Positions 2,129-8,877 of a stretch of 64,000 nt of DNA are shown piece after piece. Numbering within the stretch: position 1 is the first letter of the stretch; each line of letters opens with the position of its first letter. The translations under genes were made by a program, and so were the position numbers. The notes under the pieces are model-generated. The model saw only the letters and a program-made list of their open reading frames with translations, made no database searches and was not told where the DNA came from. Origin of the DNA: Thermodesulfovibrionia bacterium (lineage in GTDB: Bacteria > Nitrospirota > Thermodesulfovibrionia > UBA6902); NCBI GenBank assembly GCA_020053105.1, contig JAGVNU010000070.1, positions 30,428-94,427 of the forward strand, read 5' to 3'.

Positions 2129-3226
2129 ATGAAATACCAGTCTGACGATCCGTTGCATGATGTGCCTGACTTTATGGAGTCACTGGAGAAAAAAGGGATT
2201 TCCCGCAGAGACTTCATGAAATGGTGCACCGGTATGGCTGCCCTGCTGTCCTTACCAGCTTCGTTTATCCCCAAAATCGCCGAGGCCGTAATGGCCCAAA
2301 AACCGTATCTTGTATGGCTTGAGTACCAGGACTGCGCAGGTGACTCAGAGGCCCTTCTAAGGGCATCAAAACCAACTGTAGGACAGATAGTACTCGATAT
2401 CTTCTCAGTCGATTATCATGAGACGATAATGGCGCCGGCAGGATTTCAGGCAGAGAAGTCTCTTATGGATGTTGTTAAAAACCACAAAGGACAATACTTC
2501 GTTGTGGTAGAGGGGGCGATACCTCTCAAGGACAATGGTGTTTACTGCTGTATAGGCGGCAGATCAGCTATTGATATTGCACGCGAAGTCTGCGGCAATG
2601 CACTGGCAACTATTGCCGTCGGCACATGCGCGACACACGGAGGAATTCCTGCAGCACTTCCAAATCCAACCGGAGCGGTAGGTGTTAAAGAAGCTATCCC
2701 AAACGCTACAGTAATAAATCTGCCGGGGTGTCCTCTGAATGTAGAAAACCTTACCGCCTGTATAGTCCATTATCTGACTTTGGGCAGGCTTCCCCAGACC
2801 GATAAACTCGGCCGTCCGCTCTTTGCGTATGGCAAGAGAATACACGACAACTGTGAAAGAAGGGGACATTTTGACGCCGGGCAGTTTGTCAGAAAGTGGG
2901 GCGACGAAGCACACAGGCAGGGATGGTGCCTTTATGAAATGGGCTGCAAGGGCCCGGAGACCTTTCACAACTGTCCAACTGTTAAATATAACGAAGGCAC
3001 AAGCTGGCCTGTCCAGGCAGGGCATGGATGCATCGGATGTTCCGAGCCGCATTTCTGGGACACGATGACACCGTTCTACAGAAGGCTGCCGAATGTGCCT
3101 GGTTTCGGTGTAGAAAAGACGGCTGACAAGGTCGGAGTCGGCCTCGCCGCAGCAACAGCCGCAGGTCTTGCTGTTCACGCAGTCGGCAGGGCAATGTCAT
3201 CCAAGAAAGAAGATAAAGAAAAATAA
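2129..3226 (+). CDS. [NiFe] hydrogenase small subunit, group 1, Tat-exported
   Basis: Electron-transfer subunit of a membrane-bound, periplasm-facing uptake hydrogenase; it passes electrons from the active site through three Fe-S clusters. The Tat motif RRDFMKW is at residues 26-32, followed by a hydrophobic segment. Proximal-cluster residues include DCAGD (C69), GTCATHGG and PGCP; the distal/medial ligands are HDNC and the C-terminal run ending CIGCSEPHFWD. The position that normally holds the second proximal cysteine (CxxC) is Asp72. This recalls the three-Cys/one-Asp proximal cluster described in the actinobacterial-type hydrogenase of Ralstonia eutropha. A C-terminal hydrophobic helix (about residues 330-350) should anchor it. 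The start is ATG after GGGGGAGGTG. The large subunit starts 22 bases after its stop. Confidence 0.95.
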   Translation: MKYQSDDPLHDVPDFMESLEKKGISRRDFMKWCTGMAALLSLPASFIPKIAEAVMAQKPYLVWLEYQDCAGDSEALLRASKPTVGQIVLDIFSVDYHETIMAPAGFQAEKSLMDVVKNHKGQYFVVVEGAIPLKDNGVYCCIGGRSAIDIAREVCGNALATIAVGTCATHGGIPAALPNPTGAVGVKEAIPNATVINLPGCPLNVENLTACIVHYLTLGRLPQTDKLGRPLFAYGKRIHDNCERRGHFDAGQFVRKWGDEAHRQGWCLYEMGCKGPETFHNCPTVKYNEGTSWPVQAGHGCIGCSEPHFWDTMTPFYRRLPNVPGFGVEKTADKVGVGLAAATAAGLAVHAVGRAMSSKKEDKEK

Positions 3227-3248
3227 ATAATAAAAGGAGGTGGTAGCT

Positions 3249-4961
3249 TTGGCAAAGAAATTAGTAATTGACCCGATCACACGGATTGAAGGACATCTCA
3301 GGATTGAGGCCCAGGTTGAAAACGGCAAGGTCGTTGACGCATGGAGTTCCAGCACCATGTTCAGGGGGATCGAGCTCATCTTGAAAGGCAGAGACCCAAG
3401 AGACGCGTGGGCGTTTACGCAGCGCATATGAGGCGTCTGAACAACGGTGCACGCAACCGCCTCGGTGAGAGCGGTCGAAGACGCTTTAGGCATTACAATT
3501 CCTGATAACGCGAGGATAATCAGAAACCTTATTTCAGGGATACAGTACGTACAGGACCATGTGATCCACTTCTATCATCTCCACGCCCTTGACTGGGTGG
3601 ATATAGTAAGCGCGTTAAGCGCGGACCCTGCCAAGACCTCTGCGCTGGCCCAGTCCATATCGGACTGGCCCAAATCAAGCGCTGATTATTTCAAGGGCAT
3701 AAAAGACAAGCTCAAGGAATTTGTGGACAGGGGCCAGCTCGGTCCTTTCGCTAACGCATACTGGGGACACCCGGCATACAAACTGCCTCCGGAAGCCAAT
3801 CTCATGGCTGTGGCCCATTATCTCGAGGCGCTTGAATGGCAGAGGGAAGTCATCAAGATTCAGGCCCTGCTGGGCGCAAAGAACCCCCATGCCCAGACGT
3901 ATATAGTAGGCGGAATGTCTATTCCTGTTGATCCTGAAAGCCAGAACGCCCTTAACGCCGGAAGCATTGCCTTTATGCAGGGACTTGCGAAAACTGCCCT
4001 GGACTTTGTTGAACACGTTTACATCCCGGACATAATCGCCGTTGCCCCGTTCTATCTGGACTGGGCAGGTCACGGAGCAGGGGTAGGGAATTTCCTCTGT
4101 TACGGAGAGTTCCCGAACGACACAGTCAGCAACACGGAAAACCTGTGGCTGCCGCGAGGGATCATTCTCAATAAGGACCTGTCAACAGTACATAAGGTGG
4201 ACCATCAAAAGGTCACTGAATACGTAACCCGCTCCTGGTATAACTATTCCGGCGGAGACGACAAAGCCATGCACCCATGGGACGGCGAGACCAACTACAA
4301 GTATACCGGCCCGCAGCCTCCGTATGAGTATCTGAATACAGATGAAAAGTATTCATGGCTTAAGGCCCCCCGTTACGACGACAAGGCAATGGAAGTCGGA
4401 CCTCTTGCAAGGATGCTCGTTGCCTACGCCTCCGGGCATAAAGAAGTCCAGGACACGGTAAATTATGTCCTTAAGACACTCGGAGTCGGACCAGCGGTCC
4501 TCTTCTCAACCCTGGGAAGGATAGCGGCAAGGGGCGTCGAGACACTGATCACCGCCAAGAAGCTCCCCGAATGGATCAACCAGCTTGCCACAAATATGAA
4601 AAACGGGGACATGAAGATCCACAGCGGTGAGAAATGGGACCCGTCCACCTGGCCTGCAGAAGCAAAGGGCTATGGTCTTCACGAGGCGCCAAGGGGCTCG
4701 CTAGGCCACTGGGTAAAGATCAAGGACCAGAAGATAGAGAATTTCCAGATCGTAGTCCCCGGCACTTGGAACGGTTCTCCGAGAGACGCCAAAAACCAGA
4801 GAGGCCCTTACGAGGAAGCCCTGATCGGCACCCCGGTCGCTAATCCGGAGCAGCCGGTTGAGATACTCAGGACCATACACTCATTCGACCCCTGCATGGC
4901 GTGTGCCGTTCATGTGGTTGATACCGATGGAAATGAGCTTATCCGGATAAAGGTGAAATAA
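3249..4961 (+). CDS. [NiFe] hydrogenase large subunit with two in-frame UGA codons (UxxU motif)
   Basis: Catalytic subunit. The reading frame is open except for UGA at 3429-3431 and 3438-3440. Translated through, the region is [19 protein letters not shown], against the family's RICGVC motif, so the UGAs fall exactly on the two N-terminal nickel-ligand cysteines (residues 61 and 64). The C-terminal DPCMACAVH motif keeps both cysteines (549 and 552, codons TGC and TGT); the usual protease cut after H555 would release 15 residues. UGA is an ordinary stop elsewhere in the window. The start is TTG at 3249, seven bases after AAGGAGGT; the upstream GTG at 3240 overlaps the Shine-Dalgarno. Length is 570 residues if both UGAs are read. 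Selenocysteine is the best reading; a Cys-less dead gene or sequence error is less likely because both UGAs hit the two motif positions and everything else is intact. Confidence 0.9.
3430..3463 (+). promoter_or_regulatory. Candidate SECIS hairpin A, for the first UGA
   Basis: CGGT at 3445-3448 pairs with ACCG at 3456-3459 around a 7-nt loop that begins with G. Directly outside it GAGG (3430-3433) pairs with CCTC (3460-3463), leaving the second UGA in a 5' bulge. The loop starts 17 nt after the first UGA, inside the 16-37 nt range described for bacterial SECIS elements. The pairing was read by eye; no energy was calculated. Confidence 0.45.
3468..3487 (+). promoter_or_regulatory. Candidate SECIS hairpin B, for the second UGA
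   Basis: AGAGCG (3468-3473) pairs with CGCTTT (3482-3487), six pairs including one G-U, around the loop GTCGAAGA. The loop opens with GU and lies 33 nt after the second UGA, which fits the described bacterial SECIS consensus of a G among the first two loop bases and a 16-37 nt spacing. It does not clash with hairpin A. It lies within coding sequence, as bacterial SECIS elements do. Confidence 0.5.
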
Positions 4962-4975
4962 GAAAGGGAGGGAAT

Positions 4976-5638
4976 ATGAAGAACGAGAGAGAGAAAGTCT
5001 ATGTATGGGAATTCCCGGTCAGGTTTACCCACTGGATAAATGCGCTCTGTCTGCTTGCCCTTTCGGTCACCGGCTTCTACATCGCCAGTCCGTTTATCTA
5101 TGCCCAGGATTCAACTGAGTACATAATGGGATGGATGAGGTTTGTTCATTTTGCCTCAGCATACGCTTTCGTGATGAGCATCATCATCAGGCTTTACTGG
5201 TCGCGGGCAGGAAACAAGTATGCCTGTCTCTGCAGCTGGATTCCCTTGTCCGCTAAAAGAATCGGCGAATTGATAGAAGACCTCAAGGTCTACCTGCTGA
5301 TAAGCAAACGGTCCAAAAGTCATGTCGGACACTCAGCCTTTGGGGGCCTGACATACCTGCTGCTGCTGGGGGTATTTATCTTCGAGATAATTTCCGGATT
5401 TGCCCTGTACTCTGTAAACCATTCAGGCGCTGTCTGGACACTTCTCGGCGGATGGCTCACCGGCATAATGTATCTTCAGACCATAAGGCTGTGGCACCAC
5501 CTGTTCATGTACGTCATAATAGCGTTCACACTGGTGCATGTCTATATTTCCCAGTTTTCCGAGTCCCTTGAGGAGACCGGCCTCATTACGTCGATCTTCA
5601 CCGGGTATAAGTTCATCCCCGAAAAAGATTTGGAATAA
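4976..5638 (+). CDS. Ni/Fe-hydrogenase b-type cytochrome subunit
   Basis: Di-haem cytochrome b that anchors the hydrogenase and passes electrons to the quinone pool. The 220-residue protein starts with the family signature VYVWEFPVRFTHWINAL and has four hydrophobic segments; histidines that could ligate haem are in RFTHW, the FVHFAS region and the C-terminal LWHHLFMY and LVHVY segments. It begins 14 bases after the large-subunit stop behind AGGGAGGG, so it is the third gene of the same operon. Its presence makes this a respiratory, membrane-bound uptake enzyme and not a soluble one. Confidence 0.93.
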   Translation: MKNEREKVYVWEFPVRFTHWINALCLLALSVTGFYIASPFIYAQDSTEYIMGWMRFVHFASAYAFVMSIIIRLYWSRAGNKYACLCSWIPLSAKRIGELIEDLKVYLLISKRSKSHVGHSAFGGLTYLLLLGVFIFEIISGFALYSVNHSGAVWTLLGGWLTGIMYLQTIRLWHHLFMYVIIAFTLVHVYISQFSESLEETGLITSIFTGYKFIPEKDLE

Positions 5639-8385: not shown

Positions 8386-8877
8386 TTGAACATCGCAGTC
8401 TTTGGAATAGGCAATATCCTTCTGTCCGACGACGGGGTCGGTGTTCACGCCGTGAATAAACTGAGCAGTGAATATCAGTTTCCCGGTAATGTTGAGATAA
8501 TCGACGGCGGCACCAAGGGACTTGATCTCCTGCCGCTTTTTGAAAACAGGGACAGGGTGCTGATAATTGACGCGGCAAATTTCAAAAAAGGACCCGGCAC
8601 AATAGACATGGTAGAAGGCGACAGTATCCCCTCCTTCCTGAGCTCCAAACTTTCCGTGCATCAGATCGGACTTCCGGATATGCTCTTTGCGGCCAAACTG
8701 ATGGATATCATGCCTGCCGGCATATGTCTCATCGGTATCCAGCCTTTATCAATGGAGACCTCCGCAGAGATGTCTGGTCTCATCAGCGGCAAAATGGGGG
8801 CGCTGATCAGCAGGGTGCTTGAGAAATTAAAAGAATGGGGAGTGGAGGCAGTCCCGGTCAGGGCGTCTATACTTTAA
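8386..8877 (+). CDS. Hydrogenase maturation protease (HybD/HyaD family)
   Basis: Nickel-dependent endopeptidase that removes the C-terminal tail of a [NiFe] large subunit after metal insertion. The N-terminus AVFGIGNILLSDDGVGVHAV carries the conserved GxGNxLxxDDGxG pattern; the acidic residue in FGIGNILLSDD, a further Asp in IIDAAN and the histidine in SVHQIGLPD fit the three metal ligands of the family. It starts at TTG (8386), seven bases after AAGGAGG, like the TTG start of the large subunit. It should process the 3.2-5.0 kb hydrogenase, whose tail after DPCMACAVH is the expected substrate. Confidence 0.9.
   Translation: MNIAVFGIGNILLSDDGVGVHAVNKLSSEYQFPGNVEIIDGGTKGLDLLPLFENRDRVLIIDAANFKKGPGTIDMVEGDSIPSFLSSKLSVHQIGLPDMLFAAKLMDIMPAGICLIGIQPLSMETSAEMSGLISGKMGALISRVLEKLKEWGVEAVPVRASIL

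What the first reader, a model, noticed from the sequence alone, without database searches (positions are those of the whole stretch)
3429..3440. Both N-terminal nickel-ligand cysteines of a [NiFe] hydrogenase are in-frame UGA (possible UxxU double-selenocysteine motif)
Seen: the large subunit reads through [23 protein letters not shown] in one frame, and the motif expected there is RICGVC. Two UGAs that hit exactly the two cysteine positions, with intact flanks and an intact cysteine C-terminal motif (DPCMAC), are hard to explain by chance or error. Known: [NiFeSe] hydrogenases carry one selenocysteine, in the C-terminal motif (DPUxxC). I do not know of a case with both N-terminal ligands as selenocysteine. 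One of these positions is terminal and one bridges Ni and Fe, so the electronics of the active site would differ greatly from known enzymes.
Basis: partly seen in the sequence, partly recalled or inferred. Interest (0 to 1): 0.97.

Follow-up and report, generated by a model that had tools for sequence, protein, structure and literature searches.

The report
Nickel hydrogenase with twin selenocysteine ligands
In a likely Nitrospirota bacterium, the gene for a hydrogen-splitting nickel enzyme has UGA codons at both front-end positions where relatives have nickel-binding cysteines, a pattern shared by dozens of related genes together with an RNA hairpin just behind it, so the cell is predicted to insert selenium twice and would make a nickel-iron site of a kind not yet described.

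Summary
Confirmed, and stronger than reported. The 570-residue group-1 [NiFe] hydrogenase large subunit (3249-4961) reads RI-UGA-GV-UGA-TTVHA; both UGAs fall on the N-terminal Ni-ligand cysteines, and the C-terminal DPCMAC is intact. Of 140 distinct related genes read (UGA-bearing ones preferentially), 82 are UGA/UGA, 21 Cys/UGA, 37 Cys/Cys, 0 UGA/Cys; none has another in-frame UGA. A hairpin inside the gene fits the published bacterial SECIS model in 76 of 81 UGA/UGA genes of this family (5.7 expected from synonymous recoding) and 1 of 34 Cys/Cys genes; in a sister sequence type it covaries. Its loop lies 23 and 32 nt behind the two UGAs (published range 16-37), so one SECIS probably serves both. 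The genome has selA, selB and a canonical tRNA-Sec; selD is missing from this 83%-complete assembly but present in 30 of 30 relatives tested. UGA is also an ordinary stop here. Known [NiFeSe] hydrogenases carry Sec in the C-terminal motif; six searches of an open-licence library showed no report of N-terminal Sec ligands. Selenium itself is untested. Main rival: SelB-dependent cysteine insertion by selC* tRNA-Cys, seen in several relatives but not in this genome.

The parts
2129..3226 (+). [NiFe] hydrogenase small subunit, twin-arginine type N-terminus (SRRDFMK); proximal-cluster motif CAGD (C69 2333-2335, D72 2342-2344)
   Evidence: TIGR00391 458.1 bits over cut-off 179.5; PDB matches; motif in relatives
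3249..4961 (+). [NiFe] hydrogenase large subunit, 570 aa when both UGAs are read through (TTG start; AGGAGG at 3235-3240)
   Evidence: closest solved relative 3myr_B, 734.7 bits
3429..3431 (+). UGA 1 = residue 61, first N-terminal Ni-ligand position (predicted Sec)
   Evidence: aligned with C61 of 3myr_B
3438..3440 (+). UGA 2 = residue 64, second N-terminal Ni-ligand position (predicted Sec)
   Evidence: aligned with C64 of 3myr_B
3456..3475 (+). SECIS-like hairpin inside the gene: ACCGCCUC-GGU-GAG-(A)-GCGGU, loop GGU 3464-3466, 23 nt behind UGA 2 and 32 nt behind UGA 1
   Evidence: covariation in the sister sequence type
3447..3449 (+). GTG (residue 67) from which a mechanical gene call starts (504 aa), losing the whole N-terminal ligand motif
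4893..4904 (+). C-terminal ligand motif C-M-A-C (C549, C552), ordinary Cys codons
4976..5638 (+). b-type cytochrome subunit of the hydrogenase (membrane anchor)
   Evidence: TIGR02125 153.8 bits over cut-off 121.5
8386..8877 (+). HyaD/HybD-type hydrogenase maturation protease
   Evidence: TIGR00072 141.9 bits over cut-off 47.45; TIGR00140 150.4 bits, just under its cut-off 151.8

Best explanation
The gene at 3249-4961 encodes a group-1 [NiFe] hydrogenase large subunit in which both N-terminal nickel-ligand positions (by alignment) are UGA codons, and both are predicted to be read as selenocysteine by SelB under a single SECIS-like hairpin just downstream, so that nickel would be held by two selenolates and two thiolates. 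Shown: the codons and their conservation; the hairpin and its link to the UGA state; selA, selB and tRNA-Sec in the genome; the small subunit, cytochrome b and maturation protease genes nearby. Inferred: the ribosome meets two UGAs nine bases apart; SelB-Sec-tRNA tethered to the hairpin is placed at each in turn; the full-length precursor receives Ni-Fe(CN)2CO and is trimmed by the protease; the mature enzyme oxidises H2 outside the membrane and passes electrons through the small subunit and cytochrome b to quinone. By known structures (recalled) position 61 is a terminal Ni ligand and 64 bridges Ni and Fe, so one selenium would sit in the Ni-Fe bridge. Likely benefit: softer, more easily re-reduced ligands that protect an anaerobe's uptake enzyme from irreversible oxidation.
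For: Codons: two TGAs at the exact positions, in 22 of 22 close orthologues among 41 relatives and in 82 of 140 distinct genes read; 21 Cys/UGA, 37 Cys/Cys, 0 UGA/Cys; no other in-frame TGA. Every TGA-bearing place among 295 genomes of the phylum at E 1e-60 or better was read, so the missing UGA/Cys is not a sampling gap there. Hairpin: 81 of 81 UU genes of this family fold one with G in the first two loop bases, 76 of 81 with MFE at or below -7.5, against 5.7 of 81 from synonymous recoding; Cys/Cys genes 1 of 34 (0.7 expected); sister Hyb-type Cys/UGA genes 17 of 17 (2.1 expected). Covariation in 25 sequences: 95.3% of cells paired, 18 double-change cells, score 0.330 against 0.111 shuffled (0 of 500) and at most 0.062 slid. 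Published model (passages of PMC13188914): spacing 16-37 nt, G in first two loop positions, MFE at or below -7.5. Codon choice is narrowed at several codons between 60 and 74 in UU genes: residue 73 is GTG in 57 of 57, residue 66 ACG in 55 of 57. Machinery: tRNA-Sec with UCA anticodon and G discriminator, selB 358.1 bits, selA 619.5 bits, selD in 30 of 30 relatives, selB in 52 of 56 UU genomes. UGA is a normal stop in 14 of 36 long window frames. Single Cys-to-Sec swaps at each of the four positions (61, 64, 546, 549) of E. coli Hyd-2 gave enzyme that was active, though less than native (passages of PMC11212049).
Against: No protein or selenium data. selD was not found over its cut-off in this assembly (best 63.7 bits; 83% complete). 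selB is also present in 17 of 24 Cys/Cys genomes, so the link to the machinery is loose. For the window's own type the hairpin is near-invariant: pair counts over all 54 rows show no covariation, and its MFE is low but not extreme against recoded copies (p 0.058). In the covarying set, the number of pairs with a double change and the number of pair types are not above shuffles (69 and 469 of 500 as high). Seven of 30 relatives carry selC*-like tRNA-Cys. Of those 30 genomes (25 UU, 4 CU, 1 CC) only 23 have a whole canonical tRNA-Sec; in G149 (UU) it is cut in the anticodon loop, and in G207 and G262 (UU) and G295 (CU) none was found in two searches, the first of which scored only part of its candidates.
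Confidence: 0.88

Rival explanations
1. SelB-dependent cysteine insertion: the UGAs and hairpin are real, but a selC*-type tRNA-Cys delivers Cys at one or both, so the enzyme is an ordinary [NiFe] enzyme made by recoding.
For: selC* tRNA-Cys is reported from Nitrospirae (PMC7609411 passages). ARAGORN calls tRNA-Cys(GCA) among the tRNA-Sec model hits of 7 of 30 relatives (G149, G308, G272, G301, G067, G237, G253); six of them end in U before CCA, the seventh is called without its 3' end. In G149 the tRNA-Sec found is cut while selC* is whole.
Against: In this genome all 11 hits of the tRNA-Sec model were looked at: one canonical tRNA-Sec (UCA anticodon, G discriminator) and ten in Leu, Ser, Gly, Tyr and Trp tRNAs, none Cys (the search scored 150 of 252 candidates and the assembly is 83% complete). 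23 of the 30 relatives have a canonical tRNA-Sec. Cys codons are used at both positions by 37 of the 140 genes read, so UGA for Cys would bring no obvious gain.
Confidence: 0.07
2. No read-through: the UGAs end translation, and a C-terminal protein from a GTG behind them (residue 67 or 73) is made, as public gene calls have it.
For: 93 of the best 120 database records are 498-505 aa long and start at residue 67 or 73.
Against: The residues before the UGAs are conserved as protein, the fragment lacks both N-terminal Ni ligands, and the hairpin and UGAs are kept over the whole clade.
Confidence: 0.03
3. Pseudogene, sequencing error, or a changed genetic code in which UGA is a sense codon.
For: None found beyond the UGAs.
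Against: Same codons in assemblies of many species; no other in-frame TGA in the 140 genes; UGA is an ordinary stop in 14 of 36 long window frames.
Confidence: 0.01

Closest known systems
[NiFeSe] hydrogenases (Desulfovibrio HysA; archaeal VhuU/FrhA)
   Same: Selenocysteine as a ligand of Ni in a [NiFe] hydrogenase large subunit; UGA decoding
   Different: There Sec replaces the first Cys of the C-terminal motif (UxxC in the review tables); here the C-terminal motif is Cys/Cys and Sec is predicted at both N-terminal ligands. Our protein is below the NCBIfam cut-offs for NiFeSe large subunits (586.7 of 600; 425.1 of 780)
Group-1 uptake hydrogenases with b-type cytochrome (E. coli Hyd-1, A. vinosum 3myr; one 74%-identical relative is named 'group If' by its source)
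   Same: Large-subunit sequence over its whole length, small subunit and cytochrome b genes, maturation protease, four-ligand Ni site
   Different: RICGVC there, RI-U-GV-U here; Asp in place of the fourth proximal-cluster Cys, which many Cys relatives share
E. coli Hyd-2 with laboratory-made single Sec at 61, 64, 546 or 549 (PMC11212049, passages)
   Same: Sec at the same two ligand positions, active enzyme
   Different: Engineered, one at a time; here predicted natural and both at once
UxxU selenoproteins (Prx-like oxidoreductase, putative mercuric reductase, FmdB-type; review tables)
   Same: Two UGAs nine bases apart predicted as Sec
   Different: Thiol-redox or small metal-binding proteins, not a catalytic Ni-Fe site

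Membership tests
Group-1 [NiFe] hydrogenase | Large subunit profile with N-terminal and C-terminal ligand motifs | tested here: met
   Strong similarity over the whole length; L1 is RI-U-GV-U with U for C, L2 is DPCMAC
Group-1 [NiFe] hydrogenase | Partner small subunit with Fe-S clusters and export signal | tested here: met
   TIGR00391 458.1 bits over cut-off 179.5; SRRDFMK in the sequence
HydDB group 1f | HydDB classification | not tested
   Only a source's name for one relative (P0111)
[NiFeSe] hydrogenase | Sec in the C-terminal motif (DPUxxC) | tested here: not met
   C549 and C552 are TGC and TGT; none of 140 genes has a TGA beyond the two N-terminal positions
Bacterial selenoprotein | In-frame UGA conserved among homologues and aligned with Cys in others | tested here: met
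   82 UU, 21 CU, 37 CC of 140; 27 of 27 full-length database relatives fetched are CGVC
Bacterial selenoprotein | bSECIS within spacing and energy limits | tested here: met
Bacterial selenoprotein | selA, selB, selC, selD in the genome | tested here: inconclusive
   A, B, C found; D not in this incomplete assembly, present in 30 of 30 relatives
Bacterial selenoprotein | Selenium in the protein | not testable with these tools
   Needs protein
selC* tRNA-Cys recoding | selC*-type tRNA-Cys in the genome | tested here: not met
   None of the 11 tRNA-Sec model hits of the window's genome is a tRNA-Cys; 150 of 252 candidates scored, genome 83% complete

The most novel reading that the evidence does not exclude
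A natural class of hydrogenases whose nickel has two selenium and two sulfur ligands, with one selenium in the Ni-Fe bridge, written by two UGAs served by one SECIS. It forms an ordered series Cys-Cys, Cys-Sec, Sec-Sec in at least two hydrogenase families, and the second (bridging) position is always the one that becomes selenium first.
Probability: 0.82. Interest if true: 0.95.

Novelty: new variant of a known kind. Interest (0 to 1): 0.92.

Why it matters
In the reviews I could read, selenium ligands in hydrogenase large subunits are given for one C-terminal position only. A natural doubly selenium-ligated Ni-Fe site, with selenium probably in the metal bridge, would give bioinorganic chemists a site that the paper I read made only one selenium at a time, and would test directly what selenium does for oxidation resistance and catalytic bias. 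It would also show one SECIS serving two UGAs in a respiratory enzyme. Public records of this family mostly cut the protein off after the UGAs (93 of the best 120), so a family of uptake hydrogenases widespread in the Nitrospirota genomes searched, and found in some Chloroflexota, is recorded without half of its active-site motif.

Tried and rejected
Changed genetic code: rejected, UGA ends 14 of 36 long frames. Pseudogene or error: rejected. A single shared hairpin register for all UU genes: rejected; there are two main registers with nearly the same apical sequence, and pair counts with the window's register over all 54 rows show no covariation, while the other register does on its 25 rows. 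Proximal-cluster change (CxGD/CxGN) as a partner of selenium: rejected, Cys relatives share it. Strict co-occurrence with selB as proof: weak, 17 of 24 Cys/Cys genomes also have selB. A group I or II intron in the split tRNA-Sec genes: no Rfam match up to E 0.01 other than tRNA-Sec itself. A distant Chloroflexota hydrogenase with '1 TGA' (G485, L272): only its ordinary stop. Rfam on the window: nothing at gathering threshold; ARAGORN on the window: nothing. The first folding script printed only N through a key error and was redone. No structure was predicted.

Literature: six library searches looked for N-terminal or double Sec in hydrogenases; no listed title or abstract start reports it. Only open-licence full texts are held; Evans 2021 (PNAS) is not held. 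For PMC13188914, PMC9312934, PMC11212049, PMC10779653, PMC1794560, PMC7609411, PMC9723677, PMC9751293 and PMC9469722 I saw passages found by search terms; of the rest, search listings. Terminal and bridging roles of positions 61 and 64 are recalled, from no call.

Full report
WHAT IS THERE. The window begins with a hydrogenase operon: a small subunit with a twin-arginine type start (2129-3226), a large subunit (3249-4961), a b-type cytochrome (4976-5638) and, further on, a maturation protease (8386-8877). The large subunit has an AGGAGG at 3235-3240, a TTG start at 3249 and a TAA stop. It is open for 570 residues except for TGA at 3429-3431 and 3438-3440 (residues 61 and 64). Read through, the motif is [19 protein letters not shown] where relatives have RICGVC; the C-terminal DPCMAC has ordinary Cys codons. 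Its best solved relative is chain 3myr_B (734.7 bits), with which residues 61 and 64 align with C61 and C64 without a gap before them. For E. coli Hyd-2 the nickel-coordinating cysteines are given as 61, 64, 546 and 549 (passages of PMC11212049).

CONSERVATION. Counting the window, 57 orthologues have TGA/TGA and 24 Cys/Cys; a paralogue on L050 has Cys/TGA. In 41 relatives of the window's genome, 22 (itself included) hold a close orthologue covering these positions, all with two TGAs; one of these, in G068, is split into two distant pieces. A search with the L050 paralogue in 295 genomes of the phylum gave 120 with a match at E 1e-60 or better. I then read all its TGA-bearing places but only some of the others, so the shares below are not natural frequencies. 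In total 140 distinct genes (27 of 167 rows dropped as identical or contained): in the window's family 81 UU, 4 CU, 34 CC (one of them, L179, distant); in the Hyb-type sister family 17 CU, 3 CC, 1 UU; none UC. In-frame TGA counts are two in 82, one in 21, none in 37, so no TGA lies elsewhere, the C-terminal ligands included; the motif FDPCxAC/SC was read in 136, and in the other four the script met a later FDP or a cut end. In a second phylum (that of G107, by its title Chloroflexota) 42 of 301 genomes have a match at E 1e-100 or better; of 31 distinct loci read, 2 are UU, 1 CU, 28 CC, 0 UC (three of them repeat earlier loci, and a few of the CC are distant).

EVOLUTION. On a tree of 139 genes with the two ligand residues removed (one gene, L179, left out because its motif did not match), the three states need 10 changes; starred branches alone force 6 for UU (quick tree, SH-aLRT only). 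Cys proteins up to 79% identical to the window's exist, and in a 108-row tree UU and CC need at least 9 changes, 5 of them forced. Sulfur and selenium forms thus seem to interchange repeatedly. Cys/UGA occurs and UGA/Cys was not seen: position 64 seems to take selenium first. Two genomes (G295, G226) hold both a CU and a CC copy of the window's family.

THE HAIRPIN. In UU genes, synonymous choice is narrowed at several codons between 60 and 74 and not beyond, for example GTG at 73 in 57 of 57 and ACG at 66 in 55 of 57; codon 65 in between stays free. Folding excess against synonymous recodings is strongest at offset 24-26 from UGA 1 (mean z -2.1 to -2.4 in UU, -0.5 to -0.9 in CC); lesser dips of about -1.2 lie at -24 and +12 (the scan used every third UU row). 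Over all 57 UU rows that stretch has mean z -2.2, with p under 0.05 in 68% of rows, against -0.85 and 17% in CC. The window's form is ACCGCCUC-GGU-GAG-A-GCGGU (3456-3475); a sister form has a 6-7 bp stem with loop CGUGA or CGUGC. In the sister form, 25 sequences give 95.3% paired cells, 18 cells with changes on both sides, score 0.330 against 0.111 shuffled (0 of 500 as high) and at most 0.062 for slid partners. The number of pairs with a double change (3) and of pair types (5) is not above shuffles (69 and 469 of 500 as high). With the window's register over all 54 rows there is no covariation. The published bacterial SECIS model asks for a loop of 3-9 nt, a stem of 4-16 bp, a G in the first two loop positions, 16-37 nt from UGA, and MFE at or below -7.5 (figure legend in PMC13188914). 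81 of 81 UU genes of the window's family have such a loop and stem: 78 with the loop 23 and 32 nt, 3 with 24 and 33 nt, behind UGA 2 and UGA 1. With the energy limit 76 of 81 pass against 5.7 expected, 1 of 34 CC (0.7 expected), 2 of 4 CU (0.0), and in the sister family 17 of 17 CU (2.1 expected), 1 of 1 UU and 0 of 3 CC. One hairpin therefore satisfies the distance rule for both UGAs.

THE MACHINERY. The window's genome (83.39% complete, 0.06% contaminated) has tRNA-Sec (74.3 bits; UCA anticodon, G before CCA), selB (358.1 bits) and selA (619.5 bits), all on contig C8. selD is not over its cut-off there, but is present in 30 of 30 relatives tested, each with one in-frame TGA of its own, a same-genus genome included. 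Of these 30 genomes (25 UU, 4 CU, 1 CC), 23 have a whole canonical tRNA-Sec. Of the other seven, G053 has one cut by a contig end and G066 one running into masked bases; in G149 and G326 it is cut in the anticodon loop; and in G207, G262 and G295 none was found. selB is over its cut-off in 52 of 56 UU genomes and 17 of 24 CC genomes of the 80 loci. UGA is also used as a stop in 14 of 36 window frames of 220 residues or more.

RIVALS. Some Nitrospirae carry selC*-type tRNA-Cys, which SelB may deliver (PMC7609411 passages). I found tRNA-Cys(GCA) of that shape in 7 of 30 relatives. In the window's genome all 11 hits of the tRNA-Sec model were looked at and none is a tRNA-Cys, though that search scored 150 of 252 candidates. 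Such a tRNA could put Cys at UGA in some species; it does not explain why UGA and hairpin are kept when Cys codons work in close kin. Termination, error and code change are dealt with above.

WHAT IT WOULD DO. Inferred: an H2-uptake enzyme on the outer face of the membrane that feeds electrons to quinone, with Ni held by U61, U64, C549 and C552. By recalled structures, U61 would be terminal and U64 would bridge Ni and Fe. Single Sec at each of the four positions of Hyd-2 left active enzyme, at lower levels than native, with the markedly different voltammetry reported at 546 (PMC11212049 passages). N-terminal Sec is thus tolerated, and its benefit is more likely protection or reactivation than bias. 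UC may be absent for chemistry (bridge selenium comes first) or for decoding (UGA 2 is nearer the hairpin); I cannot separate these.

NOVELTY. The 2022 and 2026 prokaryotic selenoproteome reviews give UxxC for hydrogenase alpha subunits, and UxxU only for other proteins, in the passages I saw. No listed title or abstract start in six searches describes N-terminal Sec ligands. The library is open-licence only. Of the best 120 public protein records, 93 are 498-505 aa long and start at residue 67 or 73, behind the UGAs; the 27 full-length ones are all Cys/Cys, which explains how the family could be missed.

Noticed in passing
L050:2062-3762; L096-L105, L107, L109-L113: A Hyb-type [NiFe] large subunit (beside HybA- and HybB-like genes in L050, by eye) with Cys at the first and UGA at the second N-terminal ligand, with its own SECIS-like hairpin, in many members an 8-bp stem with the loop 18 nt behind the UGA; one member (L095) has both UGA.
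   Followed up: yes
L125 with L132 (G295); L128 with L134 (G226): Single genomes holding a Cys/UGA and a Cys/Cys copy of the same hydrogenase family, as if selenium and sulfur isozymes.
   Followed up: partly
L235:1501-1541 (minus), L237:1501-1541, L229:1501-1568: tRNA-Sec genes cut in the anticodon loop (G149, G326); in G326 both halves share CTTCAAAT on different contigs, which looks like an element inserted in selC; no intron family matches.
   Followed up: partly
L202, L206, L207, L208, L212, L214, L215: selC*-like tRNA-Cys(GCA) genes, most of them in genomes that also have tRNA-Sec and the UGA/UGA hydrogenase.
   Followed up: partly
window 3426-3428 and relatives: The codon just before UGA 1 is ATA in 78 of 82 UU genes, far from the mixed Ile codons at other sites; not explained.
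   Followed up: partly
window 2333-2344: The small subunit has CxGD where solved relatives have CxGC at the proximal cluster; Asp or Asn is common in relatives of both states.
   Followed up: yes
30 relatives: SelD carries one in-frame TGA in every one of 30 genomes, i.e. is probably a selenoprotein itself.
   Followed up: no
G068:C1:248056-249258 and 668751-669329: The orthologue in one single-contig genome is split into two distant pieces.
   Followed up: no
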